DNA from: Mesostigma viride
Taxonomy: Eukaryota > Streptophyta > Mesostigmatophyceae > Mesostigmatales > Mesostigmataceae
Length of the DNA stretch: 64,000 nt
Direction of reading: 5' to 3'
NCBI GenBank assembly: GCA_009746045.1
Contig: RPFO01000231.1
Span: 98,501-162,500 of the forward strand
The translations under genes and the position numbers were made by a program. The notes beneath the pieces were generated by a model that was not told where the DNA came from, ran no database searches, and saw nothing but the letters and a program-made list of their open reading frames with translations. Shown here piece by piece: positions 1,953-56,636 of the stretch (its first letter is position 1; every line of letters starts with the position of its first letter).

Positions 1953-1953
1953 C

Positions 1954-6299: not shown

Positions 6300-6400
6300 G
6301 AGTCAATCTCATCCCATTGACCCATCCCATGACCATCTCACTGAGGACTTATGAGCACTCACGTGACGCCATGTCCGTTACGTGTCGCAATTACCTTATT
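6300..6400 (+). mobile_element. Degenerate LINE tail
   Basis: CATCCCATGACC...CTCACTGAGGACTTATG followed by a damaged hairpin (TCACGTGACGCCATGTCCGTTACGTGTC). It continues the tail cluster that precedes it. Confidence 0.55.
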
Positions 6401-6736: not shown

Positions 6737-9700
6737 TCACCCCCTCTGGACTGGCCGCTGGACGTAGGACTTGACAGAATCGGACGTTTTCAACTTGGGG
6801 GGGCGCAGCTCGCCCACAGCCTGCAGGTTCCCAACATGCAAGGGACCATCCAAACCACTGATGCGTTCAAATGTCATGCGAGATCCAAATAGAGATGTAA
6901 AAGGGAGATCACTGGGGCATGGAGCAGAAAATTCAATGGCTTAATAGGGTGGACAGGTGCAATAAATGAGCTAAAACAATAGCGACCCCCACACTCCAGT
7001 CATATCGCACTATCTACCTCGCTTCAATCTAAAAGAGGGATGAACGGAAAGAATGCACGGAAAGCCTGCAATTATAAGCTAGATAGTAATCCCTTCCATT
7101 CCATTTCAATCCCGCTTAGGACTTGTGCTCACGTGACGCAGTCCACGTTTAATGCAAGGAAAAGCTAAATCCAAAAGTAAAGGAATACGTAGCACAATCC
7201 CAAATACAGACCCATTGGTGGGGGGAAGAATGCAAGAGTATGTGTGTCTCTGTGCTTTGCGTGGTCGATGAGTAGCGTAGAAAAACAGGCTCACATTGTC
7301 TCTCCACAAATGCACACCGTAGCTGTCTCTCCATTAGTTCATTAATCAACTGGGTCACGTGATCATAATCCCTGGACAAAATGGGAAGCTGTCTCTCTAT
7401 GCACAACGTACACTAAGGAATACCGCCGTGTTGCCTTGCTGAACTTGCATGCCTCTTGACACTGCCAAACGCGTTTCTAACTTGGCAGCAATCGCACCCT
7501 GTTCATCCTGCATCTCCCAAAACACGCAAATGACATGCAAAATCTTAATTCACAAAACCTTAACCTTCAATAAAATACTAGTACAATACAATGTAGTGTA
7601 CACTCTGTATAATTGTGTACTCACACAATTGTCTACAATTGTGAGCTCGCGGCTGCCTTACCCTCGACGCTGCTCACCTTTTTCTTCCCCGAGTCCTTCT
7701 TCTTTGTCTGGAAGTCCCGCCAGCTTGCTACCTGTCGCACAGCAGCGCACGCATATAACATTGCAACAGCCGTCAGTCAATCAAGCGCAATCAAGCACAA
7801 GCTAATCAACCACCAATCAATCGCCATGTTGCGTGCATTGTGCTCATGTCTTGTGTGCAATCACCCAGCCTCGGCTATGCTTGAAATTCCATTCGATATT
7901 TCTAGTACCAACAGGTGACCCGAACCACAGCTCTGGTTTCCATAAGGCTTTGGTCCAAATTAGCCCAGGATAGGGTTTAGGGTAGGGTGGGAGCGAGGGC
8001 GGGGTGGGGTGGGGTGTGTGGGGGAGGAAGGACACTGGCGTACCGGGCACTTGACCTTCACCCTGCCCTCCCACTCCTCTGCATAGGCCTGCACCTTATC
8101 CCTCCCAACAACAGCACCTCGGCCTACACTTCTATTTTCACTATAGAGTCATGAGTGTCACATAAACTATAGAGTCACCATAGTTCATGAATGAAAGAGT
8201 TGAACGGATGCCACCCGCCACCGTCCCTGCCTTCCCTGTGTGTACCCTTTTCTTTCTCTGCCTACTCCCCCCCAATCATTCCCCCCCCCCCCCTTCCCCT
8301 CCTTCCTTCCTCTGCCTAGGACCTGTGAGAGAAACAGGGACAGCCCCTCTTAGCCCCAACACGATGGTGGGCACGTCGGCAACAAGCCACGCCCATGTGT
8401 GACCCCCCTGATGTAACTGCCCCTCCCGCGTGTCCTCCCACTTGTCACACGTGTAAAAATCCTCTTCTCTTATCACTGGCAGCTTCATGTGAGCATGTGT
8501 GCCCCCTTACCCTCCCCTCGCGCGTGTGCTCCCACTTGTCGACATCACCAACCCCATTGACAATCTCGCCAGCAGGTCTCAGCGTGACCTTGCTTGCCCC
8601 TTACCCGTCCCTCGCGCGTGTCCTCCCGCTTGTCTGCGTCCTCCCACTTGCCCCTGTGCATACCTCTGACCCCACAGGATTGCTGGGGAGCTATAGGACC
8701 ATAAGCAACACTCCCTCTACCCAGGGACCCGCCCGTCGCGCGTGTCCTCCCGCTTGTCAACACCCTCTTCTCCTATCACAAGCAGCGGGAGCATGTGTGC
8801 CCCCTTACCCGCCCCTCGCGCGTGTCCTCCCACTTCTCCGCGTCGTCCCGCTTGCGCTTGTACATCTCGCGCGTCTCCGCCTCCTCCTGCTCCACGCGGG
8901 TCTCCTCCTCGGTGATCTGGGGGGGCGGGGTGAGGGACAAAGGAGGGAGTAGGGACCAGGGAAAGAATGTAAGTGCAAGACGAGGGCATGTCGCCTCCTC
9001 GGTGATCTAATTGTGTGTGGAGGGGGGGCCGGGGGGGGAGGGAACGGGAATAGGGACCAGGTGGAAAATATTAGAGGGAAGAGGATGGCAGGTCTCCTCC
9101 GGCTCCACCCGCGTCTCCTTCGTGATGATATAATGACAGCACAAATACTAGGATACTAGTATAAATACTAGGATACAAGTAGTACAAATACTAGGATACT
9201 ACTAGTAAAAATGCTAGGATACTACTAGGTCATGGATTAGTGTGATTGATTATGACAGGGGGATCCCGCCACGCACATTATGAGAGGGGGATCAAGGAAC
9301 AGGGGGTCCACAGCATTGAGTGGCAAGAGTGCACAAAGCCACGCGTCTGCTCCTCCGTGATCTGAGAAGGGAAACATAATGAGAGCAAATAGAAGGGGAG
9401 CTCATAGAAGGGGAGAGCATACAAGGGAGTCTATAGCAAATAGAAGGGGAGCGCATGGAAGGGGAGAGCATACAAGGGGAGTACATACATGGGGAATATA
9501 CAGATAGATAAACAGGGCAAGGGACAGAATAGGGACAAGTGCAAGACCATTAAAGAGCGTGTCAATCCGGTAGAACCTCCTCAGGGAATACAAGGATTTC
9601 ATGGGGCTGACCAGTTCTTGCTTCTAGTTGCCCACTGGTGCTAGAGCAGCTCCTACTGACCCGCTTGTACTAACCCGCGGCGTAACCTTGCGGTGTCGCC

Positions 9701-11890: not shown

Positions 11891-11928
<38 letters not shown>

Positions 11929-14900
11929 CTTAAGAAAGTTAGCACAGTAGCACGACAGCCCCGACCTCATCTGGAGTGATTAAGCACCATTGACGACAAA
12001 TGACACAGACGTGTCAAGTCCCTAAGCAGGAACAGGACATAACGGCGCACACTAACATGACGTACTCACACATATTAACACGGCATACTGGTATATATTA
12101 CCATGAAGCACACTTATAAACCTGACACATATAAAAGTCCTTATGTGTGGGTAAATAACCATTTAAAACAGCTTCAGAATCCGATCGCGTACGACCAGCG
12201 CTGGGATAGCTTGTTCTCGCCTGCTCTCTCAGAAAACTAATCAAGTCCCCTCAGACAACTAGTCAAGTCTTCTCAGACAACCAGTCAAGCCTTCTCAGAC
12301 GGCTAGTCAAGCCTTCTCAGATAGCTGGTCAAGTCTTCTCAAACAACTAGTCAAGTCCTCTCAGACAAGTCAACTATCCCCTCAGACAACTAGCCAACTG
12401 TCCTCTCAGACAGCTAGTAAGTCTTTACAAGACGCAGGAGCGCCAAGTGTCCAGGAACGCTGGTCCCACTTGGCAGTATTGTTCACAAACACATATTAGT
12501 TGTCTCAGATGGACAAAATACTGGTACCACTTGATAGTTAGTGTTACCAAACACAGATTAGTTACCTCAAATAGACACTGGTCTAACTTGATAGTTAGTG
12601 TTACCAAACACAGAATAGTTGTCTCAGATGGACAAAATACTGGTCTAATTTGATAGTTAGTGTTATCAAACACAGAATAGTTACCTCAGATGGACACCGC
12701 CCTGCGCTCACCTCGCGCGAAATTAAGCGTCGCTCGGAGGTTGTCCATCAGCGCGTCGTTCTGGAGCTCCTCGTACGCCTTTTGAAGGACTGCGGGCAAC
12801 AGGGAGTAAAATGATCCACCCCCACCCCCGAAGACCCCCACCCCACAAAAGAGGTGCATGGCACGTTAGCATTTACAACCCTACAACTCCTCGTAAGCCT
12901 TCCGGAGGACTGCAGGCAAATAAGGAAATATACACGAAAAAAGTAGTCTAGTTGAACGCTACAGTCGTACGTCCACGTAGGATTTCTGGAGGGCTGTGAG
13001 CCATCAAGGAAATATAAACACAAAAAGGTGTCTAGTTCACTTTAAGTCATAGGTCCTCATAGGCCCTTCTGGATAGGGGAAACAAGAAAGGGCAAACACA
13101 ATAAAAACATCTCGCAAAAACGAAGCCTTGTTCAACGTCACAGTTTTGGAGATCTTGCTGGCTTTTTCAAATGCAAAGGTAAAGCCTTCGGCCGGGTGGT
13201 GGTATCCCGCTGAAACGAAGGGTCTGACCCCACTTAACGAAAAGGGCTGCCTTTTGAAATGGTACATGAGGGTAAATGGTAGACAAGGGTTGCCTTTAGA
13301 GGCGGTAAATAAGGGTAAATGGTAGACAAGGGTTGCCATTAGAGGCGGTAAATAAGGGTATGTGGTAGACAAGGGTTGCCATTAGAGGCGGTAAATAAGG
13401 GTAAGTCGTATACGAGGGTTGCCTTTCGAGGCGGTAAATAAGGGTAAGTGGTAGACAAGGGTTGCCTTTCGAGGCGGTAAATAAGGGTAAGTGGTAGACA
13501 AGGGTTGCCTTTCGAGGTGGTAAATAAGGGTAAGTGGTAGACAAGAGTTGCCTTTCGAGGCGGTAAATAAGGGTAAGTCGTATACGAGGGTTGCCTTTCG
13601 AGGCGGTAAATAAGGGTAAGTGGTAGACAAGGGTTGCCTTTAGAGGCGGTAGATAAGGGTAAGTGGTAGACAAGAGTTGCCTTTAGAGGCGGTAAATAAG
13701 GGTAAGTCGTATACGAGGGTTGCCTGTTGCAGCAGTAGCTCCACGATGCCATCGCAAAATACCTGACCTAGCACTGTAGCATGAGACCGGGTTCTAATAC
13801 AGCTCCTCATTTGTGTGACGCCAAGGCGACCATGGCCGCGGTGAACAAGGACCGATGTTTTAAGAACTGCGCAAAGCGGGCCCTTCATTGACACAACGGA
13901 AAGAGGACCATCCACCATTGGTGCGAAACCACGAGTAATTACAAGCGACCACGGCCCCTTCTCGTTGTGAGTACAACCGAGCACACATGGCCCAGGCCAC
14001 TCGCAAGTGCAAGCAAGCGCGGCTGGTGCCGACCGCAAGCATACAAGTAACGCGTGTAAAGAGTATCAACATCGTGAGCGATACAGTCGAAAAATCATGA
14101 TCAACACAACGATCGACGCACCGCCAAAGGCCTCCTTGGCTTGCGGGTGGTGGCACTTGTCGGGGTGGATCATCAGGGAGATCTGCGCCACACGCAGGGT
14201 GGCAGCCAGGGGATAAGCAGCGCCACAAAAGCATAAGCCTTGAAAGTGCTGGTCAAGGGCTGGTCGTGGCATCCTCGCAGGATGCAGGATGTCAGTCCGA
14301 TAGCGTGAAAGTTAGAAAACACACCCTCGATCGGATCATGTTGGAGACAAAAAAATCCAAACGGTCCACCTACACATACCACAAAATAAGAACATAACCA
14401 ACGGAACCACGTTCTGCCTTGAGACCTCCTACCGTCTGACCCGCTACTATATGAACAACTGCTGTCTGACCTACTATTGGCTGACCTACTACTGTCTGAG
14501 GCGAGCTATAGGGGAGAAGGGGGCAGAGGGGGGTGGGATGAGGGGTTGAGGGGATGGTTTGGGAAGAAAGTCCTGTCGACATATATCTGAAACGTGCCAC
14601 GGCGACGATGTAGGAGTATAAAGCAAGTAAAGGATGCGGCCACGAGCCGCAGGTGTCGTTAGAAACCGCATCATGTCTGAGCTCTGACCAGCATTGCAAG
14701 GGGGCCCAGACCAGGATGCCCATTCCACCCGTTTGTAGAAAGGCGTGCACAGGATGAGCTCACCTTTCTGTACTGTTTCTTGATGTCTTCTTTGCCCGCG
14801 TCAAATTTCAGGTTAAGCTGCTCGTAAGGGTTCAGCTTGAACGCGCCCAAGATCCTGTGCACGCACGCACAGGCGGGCATCAGACGTACAAGTTTTATCA

Positions 14901-42800: not shown

Positions 42801-45800
42801 ATATTTTTTACCATTATTATCAAGGGGGGTACTCAAAAACAAGAAAATTGACATCATGCTGGATTCGAGTAGATCTCGCGAAAACAAGCATGTTTGCCAC
42901 TGGTCGCAACCCCAGGGGGTATCTAGGTAAGAAGTTACAGAGCCTCAAAACCCGTTAACTTAAAGGGTAGTTAGGTAGGGTGCCGGGCCGATATGGGTTT
43001 TTTACAACAAAACAATTGGATTTTCTGCTAGCTCCCTGTATGGTCGGAATTTTGAAACGGTTTGACGGACAAACTGATAGCACTTGGCGAGCTGAACCCA
43101 AATCTGCAGTCAAAATTTTCGCAGGTACCATAGAGGGGGGGGGGGTTGCCCGCAAGATGGTGCTGCCCCTAGGCACGGAAGTATGCTGCCGTCTGCCACC
43201 ACTACAAGGCTTCGGCTATCCAGCGCCGTGCCGTGCCAGTATCGCGTCGCGCCGGCCAACGACCCATTTCAGAAAACCGGAATTTTCCCATACACCAATA
43301 TGCTCAAACGGTAGAGCTCGCTGAGACGATCATTTTTGCTCCCTAGGTCGACCCCTAGAACCCATGGGACCTCGGGGTTTTGCTAGGTATAGCGCCTACA
43401 TGCTAGGTAGGTAGGGTCCAAGGGCCAACTTTTGGAAAATTTCAGCATGGTGTCTTTTATTTTTGTTTTGAGTACCCCCCTTGTTATTATTATTAATTGG
43501 GCTTGCGAGTCTGATCCGTGCATTGTTTTTATAATGCTTTCCGTTTGTGCATGCCAGGGACATGGAAATGCTTTCTATGATATGATCATGCAAAGCGGGT
43601 GACCTCTCCCCTTTCAACACAGCTGCCTGCCACTGCTGTTTCACTGGTTGCCATCGCTCCTCCTTTCGCCCCCCCGTAAAACCTGAAGCTATAGCCAATC
43701 ACCCCCGAATGCGAAGTCAGATGGAGAGCTAACAGCTCCCCTTTCCCTGACACACCCTGTTTCCTTATTATGCTGGCTATTCCCGTCCGACAAGATTCCC
43801 TCTTCGTCATTCCCCATGCTTTATTTCATCTTTCCCCATCCCCTCTTCATCGTTCTCCACTCCCTTTCCAGCATGGTCATGCCGGTGGAGAACAAGCTCA
43901 AGTTCGTCAAGGCGGAGGGGCTGGAGCTGATGGTCATCATCATCAAGCAGGTGCGGCATCACGGGATAAGGGAGGGACCCATCCAATGTTCACACAAACC
44001 CTACTGATGGCCACCCGCATGCACACACCCCAGGCATGTTAAGCTCAACCACTGCTCGTCATGTGCGTGCAGTTTTCCTTTCTTTTCTCGGCCCCCGGCG
44101 ATCGCCCGCCCCCACGCCCACCCCCGCCCCCACCCATACCCAACATCCACCCCATGCGCACAGGCCAAGCTCAAGCACAACTACAGGCCAAGCTCAAGCC
44201 ACAACCCGTGCTTGCTCCCCCTTCCTTGCTTGTTTCCTATTGCTTGTTCCTTTCAATCTTTCCTGGTCACCCACACCCACACTCTCGTACCCAACCTCCA
44301 CGCCATATGCAGGCCAAGCTCTACCGCAATTCTTGCTTGCAGGCCAAGCTCAACCGCAATTCATGCTTGCAGGCCAAGCTCCACCGCTTCTCATGCTTGT
44401 TCCCCTTCCCCTCGTTCCCGGTCACGCACACCCCACACCCTCAGGCCAAGCTCAACCGCTACTCGGCACTGCGCGTGCTGGACTTCTCGATGACGAACTT
44501 CCCGCCCGCATGCGAGCGCTTTGTGGAGGTCCTCGGCCTCAAGACCGTCTTTGCCGTGTTCATGGGCAAGGTGGGGTGCTGTCACTAGTCATTCTGTCCT
44601 CTGTCACCACCCCCCTAGCATTCCTCGGCCTCAAGACCGTCTTCGCCTTGTTCATGGGCAAGGTGGGGCGTCGTCGCTGTACCCATCCATGGGGTGTTGT
44701 CGCTTTCTGCATGGGCTTGGTGGGGCCTTCTATCAACTTCCTGTTGCCCAGGGGACGGACAGCATGATGGCGTTACCTGGCGTCCTGTATCGCCACCTCG
44801 TCCCTGTTGTCCTGGGTGTCCGGGGATGGGCATGGTGGTGCGGACACCTGACCGAGCACTCGAGAGTAGTATAGTAAAGTATAGTATAGTAAAGTATGTA
44901 GTATTGTATGTAGTATTGTATGTAGTATAGTATCGTATGTAGTATAGTATAGCACGTAGTATAGTATAGTATGTAGTATAGTACAGTATGTAGTATAGTA
45001 TAGTATGTAGTATAGTGTAGTATGTAGTATAGTATCGCCTCTATCGCCACCACCCTACCAGTGCTCGGCCTCAAGACCATCTTCGCCGTCTTCAAGGGAA
45101 GGTGTGCCCCTTTGCCTTTTTCATGGGCAACGTAGTGCGCTGTCTGCTATTCATGTCGCCCTCTATCGCAATCACCCTACCAGCACTCGGCCTCAAGGCC
45201 AAGTTTGTCGTGTTCATGGGCAGGACGGGTGTTTCCTGCACCCTAGGCTGATTGGTCAGGCTTCTGCTTTCTTCTTGGACACAGGTGGGGGGCCATCATG
45301 GCCCTCTTCATGGGAAAGGAGGGAGCCCTTGACTCCTAAGTTGCTTTATAGGACTTGGCAGTTTCTTTCACGGGCAGGAGTGTGTGTGGGGGGTTAATCT
45401 CATGGGCCAAATGTGAGGTGCTGTTGCTCTCTTGATCAGCAAGGTGTGTGGGTTTCGCTGCCCTCTATCGCCACCAATTGATGAATGCCTCTCGTCCATG
45501 TTCTTCTGTGCTGGAAACTCAGCGTCTTGCATCGCGCTCACTATAGTATATGTTTATGATTATTATATTAATATTATGTTTATTGATCTCCGATGCTACG
45601 GGGCATTTATGCAGGCGCATAAAGGGAAGAAGTCGGACGTCACGCCCGAGGAGGAAGAAGGCCGCGCACTGTCCATCATTGCATCCCTTGGCGGTAAGCA
45701 CCCGTCCCAGACTATGAAACTAAAATGGATGGGTTTTAAATGCTCCTTGTAATCTCGCCAAAACCTGTTCTTGCATTTCTAAAGGAATAAGACTTGTCTT

Positions 45801-48800
45801 GGGAGCAGTTAAGGGAATGGTTGCTAAGTAAACCCGCATTATGACTATTGCGACCCCACCTATGCGTAGTGAAACCAATCATCGCTTAGCAAAACTCGCA
45901 GATGGGCTAGGCAATAGGGGCAATACTGCATAGGGGACAATCTAGATCACTCACTGACCGCCTTGTGTGTGGCATTGGCTGCGCAGATGGGCTGGACACG
46001 GCTTCACCTCATAGGAGATGATAACACCACTGTCCACTGAATGCTTTTAAATAATATAACACTACTATTATAATACTAATACTATAATACTACTAATATA
46101 GTTATGGATTTTTGTAAATGGAATTCATCTGTGCAGGTGGGCTGGACAAGCCATCCGGGTGATAGGGTGGTACGTCATAGGGGATCCTATCAGCAGTGCT
46201 TTTTCTAACGGGAGGAATTCGTCAACTGGTTTGACGCAATGTTTAGGGTATTCGTCAACCACGCGAGTCAGGTCCAGCGGCGCGTAGCAGCCGAATCTTA
46301 GGTATGCTGCAGTACAGGTCATACTAGAGTTGGTTTGGAAAGACAGTACAGTCCAGTACAATGTCAGTCCGGTACCAAAACTGAAGTACTGAACTAAACT
46401 GTGCAGCGGCCAGTTTGTGAGACGAGGAAGGCAGGACCTCCGACCTCTGGCCGTCTGGCGACTAATATTAATGTAATAAAATATTGCATGCGAACTTGTT
46501 TCTATAATGGCGGCCTGCGATGTTTAGTAAGTATTGAGCTAGAGAATGTCCAAGAAAAACGGTTTGGCAGGTTTCAAGACCAGTACCTTAGATGCTCTGT
46601 TTAAAAAGCAAGCTGGAGAAACTGTTCCGGAAGCAACGGAAAATATCGTCGACCTAGGGACCTCGCAGTTTAGATGAAAAGGAGGGCAGGCAGGGCCGCG
46701 ACAAACGCAAGAGAGTAGAGGTTGACGAACAGGATGTGTCTAATGCGCAGGAAGAGGAAGATGGCGGCCAGTCATCATCTGACGAGAGTGATGCATTTGA
46801 CAGCGCCTCAATTTCTGGCGAGGAGGAATCTAGTGAAAAGGAATCTGGCCAGGAGGGGGCCAAGACAGCAAGGAGCGAGGCCGGTGATGGCGGCAGCTCT
46901 AAGCCAAGGAAGAAGAAGGGCAAGGGAAAGCCAGCTCCCAAGACGAAAAGTCAGAGACAGGATTACTACAAGCAGTATAGCAAGGAGCGGCCGGACCGGA
47001 GCAGTGGTGGGAAAACGGAAAGTACGAATGGGCCCAACAGGTCACGGCGCCCAACGGTGCGAAGATGATTCAGTGCATCCCGTGCTCTATGACGAGCAAG
47101 CCTAACCTCATGCGGTACAAGAAGCAAGCGATGGGCCAGCGCAGGCGTGGCAACACGCACAAGCGTAGAGCAAAGAAGTTTATTATTAAGTAATAAAGCT
47201 TCCCCCCCCCCCCCCCCCCCCCCCTCCTCCCCCAAGGTTTGACGAATTGCTAAGGCAAATAGTCAACCAGTTTGACGAATTGCCGAGGCAAATAGTCAAC
47301 CATTTGACGAAGTGCCGAGGCAAATAGTCAACCAGTTGACGAATGCCAAAACCCCTTAGTAAAAGCACTGAATAATAACTTCTTCTCTATCTTATCAACC
47401 ACTGAATAACAATAACACTTTGTCTAACTGTGTGTTTGAAAGTTTATTGTTGTTGTTATTTGCGCAGATGGGCTGGACAAGCCGTCGCTGCGCGAGCGTT
47501 TCGCGAGCAAGTTTGTGGAGGCGGAGCACGAGAAGTGCGATCGGCTGATGGAGCTGTATGACAAGTGAGTGCGTTTGTTGTGATGCTATCATATCTTCAT
47601 ACGAGCAGCACTATGCAATACGGTTTGGTTAGTTGCGACCGGCAGACCGAGCTGTACGACAAGTGAGTGCGTTTGTTGTGATGCTATCATATCTTTATAA
47701 GAGGAGCACTATGAGATTCGGTTAATTGTGACCGGCTGATGGAGCTGTAGGACGAGTGCTCTTGCTATTATTTCTGCAAATTCATCACCAATTTCACCAC
47801 TTATATGTTAAGTCTTACAGTCCTTGTCCATGGCATTCTCTACTAGCTGTACTACCTTTTGTGGCGTCTAACCGTTTTGTGGAGGCAGAGTGCTCTTCCA
47901 TCTAGTAGGCTGTCAATTATACTAATAACTTTTTGGTGGGTCAGATATGAGGAAGGCCGTATGATGGAGCTGTACAGCAAGTAGGCCTTCATGCGTCATC
48001 GTCTGGTGGTCGTGACGGCAAGTAGTACCTCCTCCACGTGCCATCGTCTGGTGGTCGTGACGGCAAGTAGTACCTCCTCCATGTGCCATCGTCTGGTGGT
48101 TGTGACGGCAAGTAGTACCTCCTCCACGTGCCATCGTCTGGTGGTCGTGACGGCAAGTAGTACCTCCTCCACGTGCCATCGTCTGGTGGACGTGACGGCA
48201 AGTAGTACCTCCTCCACGTGCCATCGTCGGGTGGTCGTGACGGCAAGTAGTACCTCCTCCATGCGTCATCCTCTGGTGGTCGAGACGGCAAGTAGTTACT
48301 CCTTCATGCGTCATCGTCTGGTGGACGTGACGGCACGTTCTTATACATCCTGCGCCTCCATGCTTGCCATATATGCCTCTTGGCAACATTTCCTGCACCT
48401 CCAGGTATGCTGCCAAAGTGCGCGCGCTGACACGGCGAATGGAGGAGGAACCCACGGAAGAAGAGGAGGTATGAGGAGTCTACTGCAATAAGCGGTTATT
48501 CACACACTAATTTGACCAATGAGTGTAGCTAATTCATGATGGACAAGCTGAACCCCTGGGAAATGAGTAGCTCTTGACGAGTTTCTCTTTGTCTCCCCCC
48601 TACCTGTGTCTGGTGCCTTTGGACCCCCCTGCCCCAGGAGATGGCGGTGTCTTTCGTTCTCTTGTTCTTGATTATTTGTTTCCTTTCCGCTGGCTGTGTC
48701 CGGTGCCTTTGGATCCGACGCCCGCAGGATATGGACGAGGAGGAGCTGTACTTGCTGAAGCTTGATGGGGGGCTCTTCTCCCTGCAGGCACGTGACAACC

Positions 48801-51800
48801 CGTCCCATCCCCCCCCCCCCCCCCGGGCATAGTGCCCTTTGCAACTGTGGCCTGTTCCCCAGATAAAGCGCTCCATCCATTAACAACAGGCACTACATCG
48901 ATCTACTACAGGCAGTGCATCGATCTACTACAGGCAGTGCATCGATCTACTACAGGCAGTGCATCGATCTGCTAGAGGCAGTGCATCGATCTACTTAAAG
49001 TTTAGTTTCATACGGATGCCTTACTAACTTCTTAATGCCTTACTAACTGACTACTTAAAGTTTAGTTTCATACGGATGCCTGGGCGCTGCCTCCATGGCA
49101 TCTTGCGCTTTTAAATGTGTGTTAGTTCAAGCAAACAAGGTGTGCAGTTCTGTTTGCACACTTCACCTCAACAAGTTCTCCGCGAGGTTGCCCGGGCTTG
49201 CGATGCTGACCAGGAGGCATACCCGGCAGAAAGGCGCCTGCCCTTGGGGATTATGGGGGGTCGCTTTCCTCCTCCTATTTGTATGCACCCTACGCATGAA
49301 TAGGCATGCGGAACCCCTTCCCCGTCCTTTTTCTGCGTATGGGGATTGCGTCCAAAGTACTCATGTTGGAAGGTACAGCTTAACGAATCTGTTTGCCCCG
49401 TTAACGGCTTGTGAGGTATTTTTCGCCACGATGTTCGCTACTTGGCTAGGTGTGTGGGTGGATAGGTGGATAGGTGGATAGGTGCATCGGTGGATAGGTG
49501 GATAGGTGGATAGGTGGATAGGTGGATAGGTGGATAGGTGGATAGGTGGATAGGTGGATAGGTGGATAGGTGGATAGGTGGATAGGTGCATCGGTGGATA
49601 GGTGGATAGGTGGATAGGTGGATAGGTGGATAGGTGGATAGGTGGATAGGTGGATAGGTGGATAGGTGGATAGGTGGATAGGTGGATAGGTGGATAGGTG
49701 GATAGGTGGATAGGTGGATAGGTGGATAGGTGGATGGGTGGATAGGTGGATAGGTGGATAGGTGGCTCGGTGGCTCGGTGGACCGGTGGACTGGTGGACC
49801 GGTGGCTAGGTGGATAGGTGGCTAGGTGGCTAGGTGGTAGTTGGCTAGGTGGCTAGGTGGATGGTCCGCTAGTTAGCTAGTTGGCTGATTCCCTGCCATC
49901 GTTGTTTGCTAGTTGGCTAGGTCGCCGCTGCCTGATTTTTTTCCCTGGACACAGCAGTGAGCAGGTGCAGGTGCTGTAAACCTACTTGTTCCGTTGCCTT
50001 ACCTTCTTGATTTGCCATCAAGACAAGTGTCCTGCTCTCGAAACCTGGTAGTACTCATTGTAACACCTGTCAGGGGCTATCGGGCCTGCGGAAGCGGAAG
50101 CTTTTCTTACCCTTGGCCGGTCTCCTCCTTCATGAGCCAATGCCCAACAACCAACTCTCTTGTGGCATTTGACAGTCTCCTCCTCGGCCTTTGCGATTCT
50201 ATCAACCAAGTCAAATCCGTCAAGCTTTTTTTATTCGTCTTTTTCTTTTTTTTTCAAAAGATACCCATCGGCTCTGTGTGCCTTGGGTGTACTTGCATCC
50301 ACATCGAGCTTGTCCACGTCTGCCATATTTTCTTATCGCTGCTGTTTCATTTCGATTGCGTTATGCTGGCATCTTACGCGACCGTCATGCGACACATCCC
50401 ACGTCCGCTGTGCAGAGCGTCCTTCCCTATGTATCATGATCTATTATTCTTCTCTCTTGTTCTTCTCTATTACTCCCTTCCCTATGTATCATGATCTATT
50501 ATTCTTCTCTCTTGTTCTTCTCTATTACTCCCTTCCCTATGTATCATGATCTATTATTCTTCTCTGTTGTTCTTCTCTATTACTCTATAGTTTGATGCCT
50601 GATTCCACGTCCTCTGCGCGGTGTGATCCTGTTTGATACGTAAACCCACATCCACGCCTGGGGGGTATGCATGTGACATCTCACATCCGGCCTGTTGCGG
50701 GGAACATGCTTTCCTGGCCCCCACCACCAAAATGTGCCTCCGTGTGATTCCCTGAATGAATACGTGACATCTACACAATCACCGCCTGCGTGTTCCTGGG
50801 CACAACCTCCCCCACGTCACATCGTCCCGTGGTCCCATCACTGCCTCATCCACGCGATCATCCCCACATCCCATCATCTCATCGACTCACCGTCCGCGGG
50901 AGCAGCTCATCTGCCAAATATTCGCGCATGTGTGGGCCACGAGGTGAGTCCTCCGGTGCCTCATGTGGCGCGCAGCGTGGATGGAATGGACACGAGATGG
51001 ATTGCTGGCATAAAACTGCCATAAAACTGCCATAAAACTGCCATAAAACTGGCATGTAGTTGGCATAAAGCCGTCCTTTTGGCATTAATGCCTATGCAGT
51101 GCTTCTAGTAACGGTACGCGTGCGTCAGCCGCTGACGCGTCAGTGTCTGACGCGTCCAACTTTTTCGTCCGCGCGTCAGACAGCTGACGCGTAAATTTTG
51201 GCTCTGCGTCAGTCGACTGACGCATAAATTTTGTCTGCACGTCAGTCGTCTGACGCGTAAATTCAGGCAGCACGTCAGTACTTATGGGCACCGAGTCTAT
51301 GCGTCAGGCAGGGTCAATATATAGTGGGTACCTACTAATGTACTGAAGTCCACTGAAATGCTAACTTCGTACTGGATATCTACGAATTCAAGTTCACCAG
51401 TTCAGGTCTGTTCGTTGATATGCTTCAAGATTCTAGGCCGTTATCATGCCCATGCCAGACCCGCCGGCCCTTAGCCTGCTTGGCGGCGAGAGTGACGAGA
51501 GTTCTAGACGAATGTAAAGTTGTAACCCAGGACGACTGGCCATGGTCGATGTCTCGATGATGGCAAAGGTTTTAGGAATATGATTGATGAGCTGATTGAT
51601 GAAGTGTTGCGAGGTTGCCTGATTTACATATTGCTTTGAATCGAATTCCAGGTGTGTTTATTAACGCTGTAGATTTTTTGCATAAGAAAGAATTCTGTCC
51701 AGTACTAGATGCGTAGGGAAATTTCGGGCCGGGTCAGTAATATTGTATAAACATTTAACAACGTTAATGGTTTAGTCCGATAGTCAACTAGCAAAGTTAG

Positions 51801-54343
51801 CGACCTGGGGGTTGGAAGTTTTTGGGTGAAGGGATGGAGCCGGAAGGAATACTGGGAAAAATTAAATCTGGGGGGATCGCAGCTTTTTTCATGCCGAAAC
51901 AGGCCGCCGACACGGCCAAAGCGCCTGCGCCTGGTCCGCGTGCCATTGTTGGCGTAGGCCAGGCAGCCGACGCGCTGAACCGCAGCAAGAGGAAAAGGGG
52001 GAATGATAGCAATGCAGCCAGCAGTGCAGCAGCAGCATCGGCTCAGTCCGGCAATGCTGGTGAGCCCCCAGGCTGACGCGCCGCTAACGGCGGCAAGTCA
52101 GCCGTCTGACGCGCTGCCAACGGCGGCAAGTCAGCCGTCTGACGCGCCGCCAACAGCGGCAAGTCAGCCAGGCTGACGCGGACAAAAACCCTTACTAGAA
52201 GCACTGTGCCTATGTGCAGAGGTTTGCCTGCGAGCTTGCAGCCTGAGAAGTGAAGAGCGTGCTCAAAACCGGTCTTGTTCGGTTGCGGAACTCTTTGTGC
52301 TCGGTTTTGACGGGGTGCAGAGAAGTTAATTAGTCAGTCTTCCTGATTCTTCTCAGTTTTGAAGGGGTGCAGAGAAGTTAATTAGTCCGCCTTGCTATTT
52401 CTTCTCAGTTTTGAAGGGGTGCAGAGAAGTTAATTAGTCAGTCTTCCTATTTCTTCCTTTGTGCCTTCAATACACGAAGAGCACCACATGGGAAGATCGG
52501 GGTGACCCGGCCATAAAGGGGAAGATAAAGGGGAAGGGGACACCTGCCCGGACAGTAATGGTTATGACCTCCCCTTATACTAACATGAACTAGCCTTATT
52601 ACTGGACAGTAATGGTTATGACCTCCCCTTACACTAACATGAACTAGCCTTATTACTGGACAGTAATGGTTATGACCTCCCTTTATACTAACATGAACTA
52701 GCCTTATTGCTGCGAACCCGGGTCACTAGCATGGCAATGGTCTTCTTCGGTTTTGGGAACTTGGGGTTATTAATTAATTCATTCATTAAAAGACACGTGA
52801 CTGCGTCACGTGAGCATAAGTCCTCAGTGGGAGGGGAACTTGGGGTTATGAACTGTCTCATCTTGCCAATGGGAAGGCCCTCCATCCTCACTATCCATTC
52901 CCCTGAGGATTCTCCGCGAGGCGGTCACCATATATAAATTGTTGAATCTCATTCTAGTCCGGCTGACGTGCCAACTGCTGGCCGATGCGCCAACTGCTGG
53001 TTCAATCTCATTTTTGTAACTTGATTGATGCGCCAACCGCTCGTGCCCGCAGGGACAAGGGCCTCCAGGGACGCCTGCGGCAGCTGCTGAATCAGCGCGG
53101 GGTCAAGATCCAGGAGATCCTGGATGTGCTCCAGGTGGGTTTTGCCAGGGACGTGCTCCAGGTGGGTTTTGCCAATTCAACCGGCGACTGCCTTCCCCTC
53201 CATTCCATCTCCACCCGCCATTCCAGGGAGGATGTATGCTCCGTGACGCTGTCACGTGATTTCGCTTGGTTTTCAATCCAACCTGGGTGTGGGTATCTAG
53301 GGGGCGGTGGTTAGCTATGGGACCTGCCTAGCAATATTCTGGCTGATGGGTTGTCTTGTGTGCATGGCAGCTTAACTAGGTAAAGTTGGGTTAGCAAGGT
53401 TCATTACTTTAGACGGCATCATTACTTAAGGATAGCAAGAGCGTAATTGGCATCGCAATCGCCGCTATGCCTGTTTCATCTAGGCCATCCACCCAGTTTT
53501 CCCCTACCAGCTGGTTGTACCCTAAACAGTTTCTTGACTAGCGCATGGGAACCCGCCAAAGTCTGCCTGCCGCACATCCCAATAGCAGGAAAGCATAGCT
53601 GGGCAGGAGTGTTCCCTAATCCCTACCTCCAGCCTGAAGTTTTGGAATCTGACCACTCTTAGGGGTTGGATTGCGCCCTTAAAAGGGTTGGATTACGTAA
53701 GCCTACGTTGTGTCCTGCATGTTGTAGTGTGCCGCTCGAAGGCATGCCCCGCGCGTGTGTGGAGACATCTCTTTCGGGGCACGCTGCTCCTGTCTTATTG
53801 TGCGTGTCATGTCGATAGCTCGGGCTCAATCTTCATGACTTTCCCTGGCTCATTATCCTTGCAGCTGATAGGAACAGGTGGGGCAAAACTGTCCCACCAC
53901 TCCCTGTCAGTGGCTTTCCTCACAAATTGACGGCGGATTTGCATCCCTTAAAAATATTCGGTAGCTGACAACGATGTGTTACCGCTTTCACCAGCCTATG
54001 AATTCTCTGGCCTATGGGTTACCTTGTGTGGATGGGTGATCGATTTATTGATCAAAAGTACGCAACTGCCTTAACTGAGCACAAATTCTCAACAAATTGG
54101 GTGGTAGAGTGCAATGGAGGTGTCTCTCTGACCTCGAGTTGTGGGATTGCGGGCGCCACGGCTCGAACCGCTATGTTTACCATCGTGGATTAATTGATGT
54201 TTACGGTTTCGGATGGGTGATCTGTTGAGTGCTCACACGTGCAGGGACTGGCCTCCCGCCTGGGAGATGCGAATGGAGAGGAGGAGAAGACCAAACGGCT
54301 TGAAAAGTTGCGGGCGCTCGTGGCGGAAATGGAGAACTACTAG
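15843..54343 (+). CDS. CTNNBL1: CTNNBL1-like ARM-repeat spliceosome protein, 20 exons over 38.5 kb
   Basis: Exons: 15843-16082, 16356-16412, 17999-18048, 19424-19490, 20635-20707, 22464-22594, 24208-24279, 35039-35122, 35621-35680, 36591-36650, 37866-37948, 43872-43950, 44445-44570, 45615-45693, 47468-47564, 48405-48468, 48728-48787, 50906-50943, 53053-53134 and 54245-54343. They join in frame to 1,701 nt: 566 aa plus stop, against 563 in human. Landmarks: basic LKRRK at residues 7-11 (possible NLS); an acidic region; LRALKKLVLTFERK (86-99); ARM repeats from ELYPDF (139) on, including LLGHENTD, NLHRLEE, LLKWL, CERFVEVLGLKT and DRLMELY; a C-terminal charged helix ending EMENY. The family binds CDC5L/PRP19 and NLS-bearing splicing factors in the nucleus. 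Odd points are the AT-AC intron 5, the GC-AG intron 17, the 38-nt exon 18, and introns packed with repeats. Exons were found by matching plant-like protein sequence and splice phase; transcripts were not available. Confidence 0.93.
16083..17998 (+). other. Introns 1 and 2 of the CTNNBL1-like gene
   Basis: Intron 1 is 273 bp and intron 2 is 1,586 bp, both GT-AG, around the 57-nt exon 2. Intron 2 holds a poly-C run (about 16,897-16,913), C-rich low-complexity sequence and loosely repeated segments near 17,740-17,990 (CGTAGCATGCCCTGC, CATCGTGTGATCTGTC types). No mobile element was recognised. Confidence 0.6.
18395..18645. repeat. About 68-bp minisatellite in CTNNBL1-like intron 3
   Basis: Four copies of a unit containing ATAACCCATACTGTAGCCCT, GTAGGTGGCAGYGATGCGGC and AGCCCATCGTCTACTGTACA. 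The repeat is followed by a CTGCCTTTGCTAT-type short repeat at 18,905-19,010. Upstream, the GACCAGCCCGAG of the exon 3 end is also echoed at 18,124-18,140. Confidence 0.85.
18770..18815 (-). mobile_element. Possible degenerate tail of a second LINE-like family
   Basis: ATTCGTTCATTAATTTGTCA followed by CGCAGTCCCGCTGGGAGCCG and CGGAGCAT resembles the TTAA plus GGAGTCACGGAGCA tails at 54,697-54,746 and 63,805-63,862. The match is weak. Confidence 0.3.
19574..19618 (+). repeat. Copy of exon 4 end plus donor (intron 4)
   Basis: GTGAAGAAGCTCAACGTGCT, GGCAACCGCACCGGTGTGGA copies the end of exon 4 (GTGAAGAAGCTCAACGCATT, GGCTACCGCGCCGGTGAGGA) 84 bp after the real donor. The GT position is preserved. 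Confidence 0.88.
19685..20530. repeat. 48-bp minisatellite, about 17 copies (intron 4)
   Basis: The unit contains TGCTATCGATTGGTGCTTAG, ATAGAGGCCGTGATCGAGGA and TCAGTTTG. Because 48 is a multiple of three, it is open on both strands (261 codons plus, 272 minus), giving 16-residue repeats such as DRGRDRGSVCAID. No start context, no homology, and it sits inside an intron, so it is not called as a gene. Variants (GGATCAG/GCATCAG; TTAGATAG/TTCAATAG) are interspersed. Confidence 0.93.
20766..20931 (+). repeat. Two copies of exon 5 end plus U12-like donor (intron 5)
   Basis: Copy 1 at 20766-20803 (GTCGGGCTACTGGGCCACGA, GAATACTGATATCCCTTTCC) is exact across the exon part. Copy 2 at 20891-20933 is decayed but has the perfect donor ATATCCTTTT at 20922. 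Each copy is preceded by (A)GAGCCT or AAAGCCT and short TATATTAGAGATAT-like sequence. Confidence 0.9.
21537..21905. repeat. Degenerate about 30-bp tandem repeat, ATGCTCCCATCTCGCATGCC type (intron 5)
   Basis: Around ten units, preceded by three copies of a unit with ATGTGCCCATCTCTGTTATC. It creates open plus-strand frames that read through into exon 6 but carry no recognisable protein upstream of it. Confidence 0.8.
22674..23300 (+). repeat. Two copies of exon 6 end plus flank (intron 6) with a 43-bp array between
   Basis: The exon 6 end (GTGCTCGAGTCGCTGGTGCA/GGTGGGG) recurs at 22,683-22,705 and at 23,133-23,160. The second copy also keeps intron sequence (GTGCCACC, CATCAACAGGCAGTACA). Between them (22,715-22,992) lie six to seven copies of a 43-bp unit, ACTTACGTACTAGAGGGCAC plus ATGGATATCATAATACCTGG and CAT. 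Confidence 0.9.
24246..24722 (+). repeat. 113-bp tandem duplication of exon 7 end plus donor (intron 7)
   Basis: GCAGYGCGTGCACAACACGC, TGGGGACGATTGAG/GTGAGG begins at 24246 (true exon), 24359, 24472 and 24585, exactly 113 bp apart. The fourth copy has lost part of the donor side, and a decayed fifth lies near 24,673-24,722. Each full copy keeps a usable GTGAGG donor. Confidence 0.93.
24775..25015. repeat. Short tandem repeats (TAGTTGGTAGTTT and GGGCACTTTTGTTGTTG types)
   Basis: Two adjacent arrays in intron 7: about eight TAGTTGGTAGTTTTA-like units, then four units of about 35 bp with GCAAGCATAGGGCACTTTT. Confidence 0.75.
25477..25728. repeat. (CCCA)n microsatellite
   Basis: About 250 bp of CCCA with CCCG interruptions at both ends. 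It yields GGW/GGV-rich open frames on the minus strand, which are not genes. Confidence 0.95.
25733..26057 (-). pseudogene. LINE endonuclease N-terminal fragment between two tetranucleotide arrays
   Basis: The minus strand encodes LVTFNVRTLLADGHHSYRVE, then GVQEHRR, CWRFYFAGSG and GGVGLLCSPLA, close to the start of the endonuclease in the long LINE (60,244-60,590: ATFNARTLQPD, GIQEHRR, GWRFYYGGGD, GGVGLLCSPLA). It belongs to a different family or subfamily. It is flanked on one side by (CCCA)n and on the other by (CCCG)n, and the frame runs on into both. Confidence 0.8.
26058..26130. repeat. (GCCC)n microsatellite
   Basis: About 70 bp of CCCG repeats that abut the endonuclease fragment. Confidence 0.92.
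26416..26446 (+). repeat. Decayed copy of the exon 8 acceptor side, left edge of the giant array
   Basis: GTTGCGTGCGACAGAATGTG, ATCCAACTCAGA resembles the real exon 8 boundary at 35,025-35,056 (GTTGCGTGTGACAG/AATCTG, ATCGAGATCA). The 8.5-kb array thus lies between two copies of the same acceptor. Confidence 0.7.
26459..34970. repeat. 8.5-kb (TTGTTCTC)n array, adenine-free plus strand, in CTNNBL1-like intron 7
   Basis: About 1,060 units of 8 bp. No A was seen on the plus strand from about 26,458 to 34,945. Register is constant: every 120 bp from 26,521 to 34,921 the phase is the same, so no net indels outside multiples of 8. Variation is mostly T/C at unit position 7 (TTGTTCCC) and T/G at position 1 (GTGTTCTC). 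The GTGTTC variant is frequent up to about 32,220 and absent after. It is stop-free over some 2,880 codons in all three plus frames (LFSCSLVL) and in minus (ENKRTREQ), simply from composition. Confidence 0.97.
35193..35240 (+). repeat. Copy of exon 8 end plus donor region (intron 8)
   Basis: TGATGGCTGCTTACCCGGAT, AAAGTTGCGCGCTTTAACTA copies the exon 8 end (AAATGGCTACTCACCCGGAT, AAAGGTGCGCACCAGAATTA) about 95 bp downstream. The donor GGTGCG became GTTGCG. Confidence 0.85.
35776..35804 (+). repeat. Decayed copy of exon 9 segment (intron 9)
   Basis: CAGCTGTACGTGAGCGACGA resembles CAAGCTGTACGCGAGTGAGA of exon 9. Intron 9 also holds a direct duplication of about 63 bp (36,163-36,288: CTGACATGGCGGCC, CCTCACTAGGTAGACRT). 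Confidence 0.5.
36703..36880 (+). repeat. Decayed copies of exon 10 end (intron 10)
   Basis: The exon 10 end GTGGACGCCTTGCTACAG/GTG, CAGACCACGG recurs as GAGGACGCCTTGCTACAGGC, CAGACCACGG (36,702-36,731), GGACTCTTTGCTATTTGTGC, AAACCACGG (36,778-36,806) and GTGGATGCCTTGCAATGC (36,859-36,876). Confidence 0.8.
37075..37540. repeat. 56-bp minisatellite ending in an exon-10-like donor (intron 10)
   Basis: Eight nearly identical copies of TGCTAGCCTGTAATTAGGTT, CATGGTAACCATCAGGAGCG, ATCCTGTCTATTGGAA. The last copy runs into ATGCTTTGCTACAGGTAATG, again an echo of the exon 10 end (GACGCCTTGCTACAG/GT). Confidence 0.9.
38016..38182 (+). repeat. Two copies of exon 11 end plus donor (intron 11)
   Basis: Copy 1 (38,016-38,076): GGGGAAGAGGAGGAGATGGT, GGAGAGCTTCTTCGACGCGC, TGTGCAG/GTTGGGG, almost identical to exon 11. 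Copy 2 (38,137-38,180): decayed AAAGGAGATGGTGGAAGGCA, then GGTGCGCAG, cut exactly there by the LTR element; its continuation GTAGGCAAC is at 42,710. Confidence 0.9.
38181..38830 (-). repeat. 3' LTR (in element orientation)
   Basis: 650 bp, similar throughout to the right-hand LTR. It contains CAGCCAATGCGAAAGATCTA, GGCAAATGGCATCCGGAATA and, at its outer side in element orientation, TGTTTCGGCC. Confidence 0.92.
39081..39455 (-). CDS. Integrase C-terminus and chromodomain of the LTR element (partial)
   Basis: 124 codons open. MFLGPHKVLQKLGYVMVKVD, then NTSPNFHRDQLKLYHQN is the typical Ty3/gypsy integrase tail (GPf.V...G...Y...LP...FH...LK.Y). EVDEIVDHRDIKHG, YRLRWRFAQHNYEDSWRSEN and LEGCERLL form a chromodomain (V..I..hR, Y.v.W.g, W.....l). 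Such domains in chromoviruses target integration to specific chromatin marks. The upstream integrase core is absent, so it is a remnant. Confidence 0.85.
   Translation of the reverse strand: MFLGPHKVLQKLGYVMVKVDIPSSWNTSPNFHRDQLKLYHQNSIQGRLNPPAPAEYNPETGEQEDEVDEIVDHRDIKHGRGRHRQYRLRWRFAQHNYEDSWRSENELEGCERLLCECKAKHALH
39500..40610 (-). pseudogene. Gag-like region of the LTR element with in-frame 15-bp repeats
   Basis: Minus frame 40604-39696 (302 codons) starts with Ser/Gln/His-rich low complexity and ends in LAFSKLSQGTTPFREFLTEF, then a stop and AFSARLEDLTWTEYRVRFIE, matching the retrotransposon Gag pattern (L..L.Q...sv.eY...F..L...l). Between 39,903 and 40,145 sits an array of about 16 units of 15 bp (GTAGGAGATAAGAAC) that encodes [T/M]FL[S/F]P repeats in frame. 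Several stops break the Gag frame. Confidence 0.7.
41030..42003. repeat. Near-1-kb inverted repeat (foldback) in the LTR element leader
   Basis: The left arm runs from about 41,030 (CGAAGAGCCCTTGTG) to 41,495; the right arm from about 41,545 to 42,001 (ending GAGGGCTCTTCG). Arms match closely: CGCAAGGTGCGTTTTGAATA against TATTCAAAACGCACCTTGCG, and AGGTATGTTTGTCATGCATT against AATGCATGACAAACATACCT. The central spacer is only about 50 bp. The right arm holds an A-run (41,610-41,621) absent from the left. No clear target duplication was found. It lies between the 5' LTR and Gag. Confidence 0.9.
42040..42704 (-). repeat. 5' LTR (in element orientation)
   Basis: 665 bp, plus-strand ends TGTTACATCCC...GGCCGAAACA. 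Small indels relative to the other LTR (for example an extra TGGTTACACC near 42,671). The sequence just inside (minus: CTAGATCGGAGGTG) does not match a primer-binding site I recognise. Confidence 0.9.
42821..43483. mobile_element. 663-bp non-autonomous TIR element
   Basis: Termini are inverted: CAAGGGGGGTACTCAAAA at 42,821 and TTTTGAGTACCCCCCTTG ending at 43,483, with weaker inverted similarity continuing for about 45 bp (GACATCATGCTG versus CAGCATGGTGTC). Both flanks are ATT-rich (ATTATTAT before, TTATTATT after), compatible with a 7-8-bp TSD but ambiguous. No transposase. Superfamily not assignable. Confidence 0.75.
44160..44400 (+). repeat. Copies of the exon 13 acceptor side (intron 12)
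   Basis: The real boundary is CTCAG/GCCAAGCTCAACCGC (44,445). CAGGCCAAGCTC recurs at about 44,161, 44,186, 44,311, 44,340 and 44,370. The later ones read GCAGGCCAAGCTCNACCGCA and CTTGCTTG in tandem, about 29 bp apart. All could in principle act as acceptors. Confidence 0.9.
44618..45330 (+). repeat. Copies of exon 13 end plus donor (intron 13)
   Basis: The exon 13 end CTCGGCCTCAAGACCGTCTT, TGCCGTGTTCATGGGCAAG/GTGGGG recurs at about 44,626-44,672 (near identical), 45,063-45,105, 45,185-45,231 and, decayed, 45,300-45,325. The (TAGTATAGTATG)n run at 44,868-45,035 lies between copies. CACCCTACCAG precedes several copies, so the duplicated unit includes intron sequence. Confidence 0.9.
45890..46165 (+). 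repeat. Three copies of the exon 15 acceptor side (intron 14)
   Basis: Real boundary: TTGCGCAG/ATGGGCTGGACAAGCCGT (47,468). Copies: CTCGCAGATGGGCTAGGCAA (about 45,895), GCTGCGCAGATGGGCTGGAC (45,981) and CTGTGCAGGTGGGCTGGACA, AGCCATC (46,131). Each is followed by a related CATAGGRGAT stretch. Confidence 0.88.
46194..47370 (+). mobile_element. hAT-like non-autonomous DNA transposon 2 (intron 14)
   Basis: Terminal inverted repeats CAGTGCTTTTTCTAACGGG (46,194) and the reverse of CAGTGCTTTTACTAAGGGG (ending 47,370). Subterminal repeats of GTCAACYRGTTTGACG and GCAAATAGTCAACC type occur at both ends. Target duplication not detected: 8 bp before is CCTATCAG, after is AATAATAA. A poly-C run (about 47,203-47,224) interrupts the right side. 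Contains a basic, Ser/Glu-rich coding remnant. Confidence 0.78.
46546..47068 (+). pseudogene. Transposase N-terminal remnant inside hAT-like element 2
   Basis: ORF 46546-46677 starts MSKKNGLAGFKTSTLDALFK and ends at TGA. A second open frame (46,736-47,068) is Ser/Glu-rich then Lys/Arg-rich (KPRKKKGKGKPAPKTKSQRQ), possibly a nuclear-localised N-terminal region. The ALFKKQ motif parallels AAFFMPKQ in element 1. No DDE-type catalytic region or hAT dimerisation domain is present. Confidence 0.45.
47636..47985 (+). repeat. Copies of exon 15 end plus donor (intron 15)
   Basis: The exon 15 end GATGGAGCTGTATGACAA/GTGAGTGCGTTTGTTGTGAT recurs at 47,647-47,690 (GACCGAGCTGTACGACAAGT, GAGTGCGTTTGTTGTGATGC), at 47,730-47,760 (CGGCTGATGGAGCTGTAGGA, CGAGTGC) and at 47,961-47,983 (TGATGGAGCTGTACAGCAAG, TAGG). 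Confidence 0.88.
47985..48335. repeat. 45-bp minisatellite (intron 15)
   Basis: Seven to eight copies of GTGGTCGTGACGGCAAGTAG, TACCTCCTCCACGTGCCATC, GTCTG. Open in several frames because 45 is a multiple of three; not coding. Confidence 0.92.
48788..48795 (+). other. GC-type 5' splice site of intron 17
   Basis: Exon 17 ends CTTCTCCCTGCAG and the intron starts GCACGTGA. All other U2-type donors in this gene start GT. The phase and the conserved LDGGLFSLQ/LICQIF junction support a GC donor here; using the nearby GT four bases on would break the frame. Confidence 0.7.
48885..49080. repeat. 22-bp and longer tandem repeats (intron 17)
   Basis: About five copies of AGGCAGTGCATCGATCTACT, AC, then a direct duplication of CTACTTAAAGTTTAGTTTCA, TACGGATGCC. 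Confidence 0.8.
49450..49870. repeat. (GGTGGATA)n 8-bp array (intron 17)
   Basis: About 40 units with GGTGCATC, GGTGGCTC and GGTGGCTA variants at the right end, grading into GTTGGCTAGGTGGCTA. A second 8-bp-unit array in the same gene. Confidence 0.93.
50423..50590. repeat. 55-bp tandem triplication (intron 17)
   Basis: Three near-identical copies of TTCCCTATGTATCATGATCT, ATTATTCTTCTCTCTTGTTC, TTCTCTATTACTCCC, lying about 300 bp before exon 18. Confidence 0.88.
51089..52214 (+). mobile_element. hAT-like non-autonomous DNA transposon 1 with 8-bp TSD (intron 18)
   Basis: Perfect 8-bp target duplication TGCCTATG at 51089-51096 and 52207-52214. Terminal inverted repeats CAGTGCTTCTAGTAACGGT and the reverse of CAGTGCTTCTAGTAAGGGT. 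Dense subterminal TGACGCG/CGCGTCA motifs at both ends (51,118-51,305 and 52,072-52,182) look like transposase-binding sites. Length is 1,110 bp; it lacks a transposase catalytic region. TIR start and TSD length fit the hAT superfamily. Confidence 0.93.
51834..52076 (+). pseudogene. Transposase N-terminal remnant inside hAT-like element 1
   Basis: 80 codons from ATG at 51834: MEPEGILGKIKSGGIAAFFM, PKQ, then Ala/Pro/Ser-rich sequence with a basic SKRKRG patch. It ends at TGA 52,074-52,076. The hydrophobic-aromatic AAFF motif followed by basic residues is common at hAT transposase N-termini. Function of the rest unknown. Confidence 0.45.
52285..52710. repeat. Two triplicated minisatellites of about 51 and 54 bp (intron 18)
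   Basis: 52,285-52,455: GGGGTGCAGAGAAGTTAATT, AGTCAGTCTTCCTATTTCTT units. 52,549-52,710: GGACAGTAATGGTTATGACC, TCCCCTTATACTAACATGAA, CTAGCCTTATTACT units. Confidence 0.88.
52755..52849 (-). mobile_element. Tail-only LINE insertion with 16-bp TSD (intron 18)
   Basis: A 63-bp insert (52771-52833): TAATTAATTCATTCATTAAA, AGACACGTGACTGCGTCACG, TGAGCATAAGTCCTCAGTGG, GAG. It is flanked by GGGAACTTGGGGTTAT at 52755-52770 and 52834-52849. Nothing but the terminal hairpin and TTAA-type tail is present. Confidence 0.9.
53124..53177 (+). repeat. Direct duplication of exon 19 end plus donor (intron 19)
   Basis: GATGTGCTCCAG/GTGGGTTTTG, CCAGGG is followed at once by GACGTGCTCCAGGTGGGTTT, TGCCAATTC. A second intact donor lies 28 bp after the real one. 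Confidence 0.92.
53195..53268 (+). mobile_element. Degenerate LINE tail (intron 19)
   Basis: CCCCTCCATTCCATCTCCAC, then GGATGTATGCTCCGTGACGC, TGTCACGTGATTT: a mutated family 1 tail. Confidence 0.6.
54125..54190 (-). mobile_element. Degenerate LINE 3'-end fragment (intron 19)
   Basis: GAGTTGTGGGATTGCGGGCG, CCACGGCTCGAACCGCTATG matches the LINE end (TAGTTACAGGATTGCGGGCA, CCATGGCCCGAATCGCTATG at 6,551-6,590). Confidence 0.6.
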
Positions 54344-56450: not shown

Positions 56451-56479
56451 GCTTTGAATACACCCCCCCCTGTAGTTGC

Positions 56480-56636
56480 CGGGAATGGAATGAATGATCC
56501 TAGCTATCTAGTGCCTAGTTACAAGGTTGTGGGCACCATGGCCCGAATCGCTAAGAATGCCAACTGGGTCACACGCGGATCCCCCACTGACTTGGGGGTG
56601 GTCTCCTTCATCACTACTTGCCACCTAACCGTGCGA
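56480..56636 (-). mobile_element. LINE family 1 3'-end fragment, inverted relative to copy D
   Basis: CTATCTAGTGCCTAGTTACA, GGGCACCATGGCCCGAATCG, then the CTTGGGGGTGGTCTCCTTCA block: the last about 155 bp of the element in minus orientation. It joins directly to plus-strand ORF2 at 56,637. Confidence 0.75.

What the first reader, a model, noticed from the sequence alone, without database searches (positions are those of the whole stretch)
6737..54343. Introns of both host genes carry decayed local copies of the adjacent exon end with its splice site
Seen directly at many introns. Donor-side copies follow CTNNBL1-like exons 4, 5, 6, 7, 8, 10, 11, 13, 15 and 19 and DNAJC8-like exons 6 and 7. 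Acceptor-side copies precede CTNNBL1-like exons 8, 13 and 15 and DNAJC8-like exons 4 and 7. They range from exact (exon 7: 113-bp period, four copies; exon 19: 28-bp direct repeat) to barely recognisable. Copies are always local and carry intron sequence with them. This suggests introns here grow by repeated tandem duplication at exon-intron boundaries, seeding minisatellites and supplying many decoy splice sites. I know of proposals that tandem duplication of AGGT-containing exon sequence creates introns, but not of boundary duplication as a general feature of one gene.
Basis: partly seen in the sequence, partly recalled or inferred. Interest (0 to 1): 0.88.

Follow-up and report, generated by a model that had tools for sequence, protein, structure and literature searches.

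The report
Decayed splice-site copies in algal introns
In the single-celled alga Mesostigma viride, about a third of the exon ends examined have a second, decaying copy of themselves and their splice site just inside the following intron, likely left by ordinary small DNA duplications that splicing would tolerate on that side and would tolerate less at the start of an exon.

Summary
The window is Mesostigma viride nuclear DNA with a 20-exon CTNNBL1 gene and a 9-exon DNAJC8 gene. Copies are direct (inverted matches at chance level) and lie on the boundary's own side. Donor copies also occur in 13 of 28 kinesin loci and the one chaperonin locus examined. Pooled: 33 of 99 donors, 10 of 105 acceptors; intron-interior points about 12%.

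A boundary hotspot is not needed: among the youngest copies donors (8.6%) match intron interior (9.0%). Old exon-end copies likely stay visible because the exon does not decay, whereas both halves of an intronic repeat do. Decoy donors decay as expected without selection (dinucleotide kept in 25 of 33; 26.7 expected). The unexpected part is the threefold donor/acceptor asymmetry (p = 3e-5; 0.04 without splice calling), most simply selection against duplicated acceptors, not shown directly. Half of the nearest offsets lie at 70-115 bp. Intron gain by tandem duplication does not fit. Use of the decoys is untested; I had no RNA data.

The parts
15843..54343 (+). CTNNBL1 gene, 20 exons; intron 5 is AT-AC, intron 17 GC-AG
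6737..15108 (-). DNAJC8 gene, 9 exons
18120..18157 (+). copy of exon 3 end and donor, offset 91
19577..19648 (+). copy of exon 4 end and donor, offset 119; exon part 28/33, intron part 29/39
20758..20799 (+). copy of exon 5 end with AT-type (U12-like) donor, offset 86
20903..20928 (+). second copy of exon 5 end with AT-type donor, offset 214
22674..22701 (+). copy of exon 6 end and donor, offset 100
23132..23190 (+). second copy of exon 6 end and donor, offset 559
24246..24621 (+). 113-bp tandem array that starts inside exon 7 and repeats its end and donor
35189..35248 (+). copy of exon 8 end, donor dinucleotide TT in the copy, offset 94
36704..36720 (+). copy of exon 10 end, donor dinucleotide GC in the copy, offset 69
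38017..38065 (+). copy of exon 11 end and donor, offset 115; exon part 46/47
44622..44668 (+). copy of exon 13 end and donor, offset 92
45061..45231 (+). further decayed copies of exon 13 end
47634..47758 (+). copies of exon 15 end and donor, offsets 98 and 191
53149..53174 (+). second unit of the 27-bp direct repeat of exon 19 end and donor
9673..9700 (-). copy of DNAJC8 exon 6 end, offset 181
8394..8758 (-). four copies of DNAJC8 exon 7 end and donor region
17900..17927 (+). upstream copy of exon 3 start
24119..24147 (+). upstream copy of exon 7 start
44024..44357 (+). upstream copies of exon 13 start with acceptor
45980..46155 (+). two upstream copies of exon 15 start with acceptor
26415..26438 (+). 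weak upstream copy of exon 8 start, beyond the octamer array
12887..12919 (-). upstream copy of DNAJC8 exon 4 start
8990..9364 (-). upstream copies of DNAJC8 exon 7 start

Best explanation
The copies are likely remnants of small tandem duplications (nearest offset 60-120 bp in 22 of 33) that would strike introns throughout this genome and are seen at exon ends because a duplication spanning a donor site is likely harmless and stays recognisable long after it has decayed. Shown: copies are direct, lie on the boundary's own side, often carry aligned intron sequence, and were found at donors in both window genes, 13 of 28 kinesin loci and the one chaperonin locus; the youngest donor copies are no commoner than young intronic ones; decoy sites are kept at the rate expected from the exon part of the same copies. 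Inferred: after duplication the first donor keeps being used, so the second exon end falls into the intron and drifts, while the real exon stays under selection and acts as a fixed ruler. Inferred: a duplicated acceptor puts an intact decoy upstream, where it would be met first, so such duplications are removed more often, which gives the threefold donor excess. Untested here: the DNA-level cause; unit size and the short junction overlaps would fit end-joining repair of staggered breaks or paired nicks.
For: Pooled donors 33 of 99, acceptors 10 of 105, Fisher p 3.1e-5, the same counts with no complexity filter. Direction: with probes anchored on profile hits and no splice calling, exon end against downstream intron 20 of 86, against upstream intron 2 of 86; exon start against upstream 9 of 86, against downstream 0 of 86; reverse strand 1 and 0 of 86, at a 1% threshold. 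Exon-internal probes 0 of 42. Intron-part homology z>2 in 16 of 25 copies; 25 of the 27 then in hand were tested, two short-offset ones left out. Age-matched youngest class: donors 8 of 93 (8.6%), interior 9.0% (bootstrap 6.0-12.1%), acceptors 2 of 99. Decoy decay: dinucleotide kept in 25 of 33, expected 26.7. Nearest donor offsets have quartiles 70, 92, 115, not different from interior repeats (median 72, p 0.29, crude clusters). Of 62 fresh two-copy rows, which include nested multiples of a few arrays, 40 overlap by 0-2 nt at the junction. Replication loci fetched after the test was fixed: donors 5 of 23, acceptors 2 of 26, interior 12%; then donors 1 of 6, acceptors 0 of 6.
Against: Age matching is rough: in the middle classes donors still exceed interior (19 of 93 against 11.0%, p 0.06; 24 of 93 against 11.7%, p 0.004, both against the upper bootstrap limit), so a mild donor bias is not excluded. 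Several copies have a much better kept exon part than intron part (exon 11: 46/47 against about half; exons 5, 6, 13 similar), more than twofold decay predicts, though copies were chosen by their exon part; at exon 15 the two parts are equally diverged. In 9 of 25 copies the intron part shows no clear homology. Without splice calling the donor/acceptor contrast is only p 0.04-0.05. Surviving acceptor decoys are not clearly disabled: of 10 nearest, 6 score lower than the real site, 2 equal, 2 higher, and 21 of 33 donor decoys also score lower, so selection on acceptors is not visible there. Nearest-offset frame: 6 of 32 in frame (p 0.05), unexplained. L019 and L021 look like paralogues sharing one event.
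Confidence: 0.68

Rival explanations
1. Donor boundaries are a mutational hotspot: something tied to transcription or splicing at the 5' splice site raises the rate of tandem duplication there.
For: Donors exceed interior threefold overall and about twofold in the middle age classes; donors exceed acceptors.
Against: The youngest class shows no excess (8 of 93 against 9.0%); unit lengths do not differ detectably from interior repeats (p 0.29).
Confidence: 0.17
2. The copied exon ends are kept for a function, for example as decoy U1-binding sites or regulated alternative donors.
For: Exon part far better kept than intron part in several copies, notably exon 11; 21 of 33 decoys would pass as donors.
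Against: Dinucleotide retention equals the expectation from the copies' exon parts (25 against 26.7 of 33); BLAST alignments give roughly 2:1 intron:exon divergence at exons 3, 4, 8, 13 (third copy) and DNAJC8 7; 26 of 32 nearest units would shift the frame if used.
Confidence: 0.08
3. These are traces of intron birth by tandem duplication of AGGT-bearing exon sequence.
For: Exon ends with AGGT-like sites are duplicated.
Against: That model puts the second copy at the intron's 3' end. In the 13 window cases, where intron ends are known, the nearest copy lies 27-181 nt from the donor in introns of 498 nt or more; in the other 20 it lies 25-205 nt away with the next matched exon at 335 nt or more, though an unmatched exon could lie between.
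Confidence: 0.03
4. Assembly artefact of long-read data in repeats.
For: Some copies are exact or nearly so (exon 7, L019, L034).
Against: Many copies are diverged, with different states at different copies of one exon, and the published assembly was polished with 162x short reads (passages of PMC6947507).
Confidence: 0.02

Closest known systems
Intron gain by tandem genomic duplication (review PMC3443670, passages seen; Hellsten 2011 and Gao and Lynch 2009 seen only as references there, not held)
   Same: Tandem duplication of sequence around an AGGT-like exon boundary.
   Different: There the duplication creates an intron bounded by the two copies; here it enlarges an existing intron and the copies sit near its 5' end.
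Small tandem duplications from break repair (PMC8355091, start of abstract and passages seen; Schiml 2016, plants, seen only as a reference title)
   Same: Short head-to-tail duplications of tens of bp, with little junction homology in the main pathway.
   Different: Those were induced by nickases in cultured cells; nothing here tests the enzymes.
Long, repeat-rich introns of M. viride (PMC6947507, passages seen)
   Same: Same species; mean intron 1142 bp and 30.1% repeats in introns reported.
   Different: The passages seen do not mention exon-end copies or splice-site duplication; the paper was not read whole.
Introners (PMC9860276, start of abstract seen)
   Same: Repeated sequence tied to splice sites.
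   Different: Introners are copies inserted into many genes; these copies resemble their own exon end, in the introns compared.

Membership tests
Small tandem duplication | Head-to-tail direct copies next to the source | tested here: met
   offset scans, reverse-strand and wrong-side controls
Small tandem duplication | Copy is contiguous across the boundary, exon and intron together | tested here: met
   16 of 25 with intron-part homology z>2; the other 9 not resolved
Small tandem duplication | Made by break repair (paired nicks, staggered breaks) | not testable with these tools
   junction overlap of 0-2 nt in 40 of 62 rows is only compatible
Intron gain by tandem genomic duplication | Intron lies between the two copies, second copy at the acceptor | tested here: not met
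   0 of 13 in the window; 0 of 20 elsewhere judged by the next matched exon
Introner | Same sequence inserted in many genes | tested here: inconclusive
   exon-end probes match their own intron above the level of all other introns compared; the whole genome was not searched with the copies
U12-type intron (CTNNBL1 intron 5) | AT-AC ends with an ATATCCTYTY-like 5' site (consensus recalled) | tested here: met
   ATATCCTCTC at 20708, AC end at 22463; U11 RNA in the genome, 62.9 bits against a cut-off of 39
U12-type intron (CTNNBL1 intron 5) | U12 branch-point motif close to the acceptor | tested here: inconclusive
   no clear match by eye in the last 40 nt; the U12 RNA search did not complete

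The most novel reading that the evidence does not exclude
Intron ends in this genome are a fossil record of splice-site choice: duplicated donors pile up freely because the exon-proximal donor always wins, whereas duplicated acceptors are purged because the first acceptor met wins. The donor/acceptor ratio of decayed boundary copies would then measure the polarity of splice-site selection in any genome that duplicates its introns this often.
Probability: 0.4. Interest if true: 0.72.

Novelty: new variant of a known kind. Interest (0 to 1): 0.5.

Why it matters
It separates two ideas that are easily confused: a special mechanism at exon-intron boundaries, and a general duplication process that exons merely make visible. 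It also gives a measurable asymmetry, donor against acceptor, that bears on how splice sites are chosen, and names genes whose introns hold near-functional decoy donors (including two decoys of an AT-AC intron), a natural test bed for exon definition.

Tried and rejected
A first self-BLAST listing suggested that boundary units were never shorter than 69 bp; it had missed the 27-bp repeat at exon 19, presumably because such hits lie near the self-diagonal, so it was replaced by an offset scan. The window alone suggested that boundary units (mostly 84-119) differ from intronic units (mostly 11-68); with more loci the difference was not significant (p 0.29). A constraint on the copied exon ends was considered because of exon 11 and not adopted after the dinucleotide count. 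Tandem-duplication intron gain was tested and set aside. Nine paper searches listed no paper that by title or abstract start reports exon-end copies as a general feature of introns; one search returned none; listings were not opened apart from the papers named. The own-genome searches with PF00004 and PF08393 did not complete.

Rows dropped before counts: of 52 and 27 kinesin exon hits and 7 chaperonin hits, donors without a site scoring 5.4 or more (9, 4, 1) and acceptors without 3.8 or more (6, 1, 1). Kinesin loci used: 28, holding 79 of the 129 matches, chosen mostly for several exons within 10 kb, not at random; of the chaperonin matches (58) one locus with 7. In one search, 25 of 27 copies were tested. 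The spanning test stops at offset 600, so the exon 15 acceptor copies (1331 and 1481) are not in its counts.

Full report
What the window is. The CTNNBL1-like gene encodes a protein identical, over the 87% of it that aligns, to the Mesostigma viride model jgi/Mesvir1/13793, and the DNAJC8-like gene is identical over 258 aa to jgi/Mesvir1/13790. That 'Mesvir1' means Mesostigma viride is recalled; it agrees with the assembly size: the window lies on contig C1713 of a 440-Mb assembly, and the published long-read assembly of strain NIES-296 has 442 Mb (PMC6947507, passages seen). My CTNNBL1 model has 20 exons with standard sites except AT-AC in intron 5 and GC-AG in intron 17. The public model lacks exon 18 and runs out of frame after exon 17; the alignment to the solved beta-catenin-like protein 1 (human by recall) supports the 20-exon reading. 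Which donor is used is inferred from protein continuity and these models; I had no RNA.

Noticed in passing
window 20708-22463: CTNNBL1 intron 5 is an AT-AC, U12-like intron, and a U11 RNA gene is found in the same genome (G000:C1535:2842495-2842623), so the minor spliceosome is probably present in this early streptophyte.
   Followed up: partly
window 26462-34956: 8.5-kb array of about 1060 copies of the octamer CTTGTTCT in CTNNBL1 intron 7, with AT skew of -1.000, i.e. no A on the + strand, from 28001 to 34000; it separates the real exon 8 acceptor from a weak decoy copy.
   Followed up: partly
window 38184-42587: About 545-nt direct repeats (93-97% identical in two blocks) 3.86 kb apart in intron 11, LTR-like, with long inverted repeats (41029-41998) inside.
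   Followed up: partly
window 46200-47350: Insert in intron 14 with short open frames that by eye is flanked by TTTGACGAAT-like repeats; by eye intron 18 (51100-52190) has a similar layout with CTGACGCG repeats.
   Followed up: no
window 1-6400 and 63487-63651: By eye, unconfirmed: reverse-transcriptase-like broken frames and several copies of a repeat holding CACGTGACTGCGTCACGTGAGC with TTAATTAA tails; a related repeat lies at 63487-63651. Most of 56001-64000 was not read.
   Followed up: no
P0001 (jgi/Mesvir1/13793): The public CTNNBL1 model skips exon 18 (window 50906-50943) and ends in a different frame.
   Followed up: yes
L019 and L021: Two kinesin loci share a 70-bp donor duplication at an exon covering the same part of the motor domain, so at least one boundary copy may predate a gene duplication or have been converted.
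   Followed up: no
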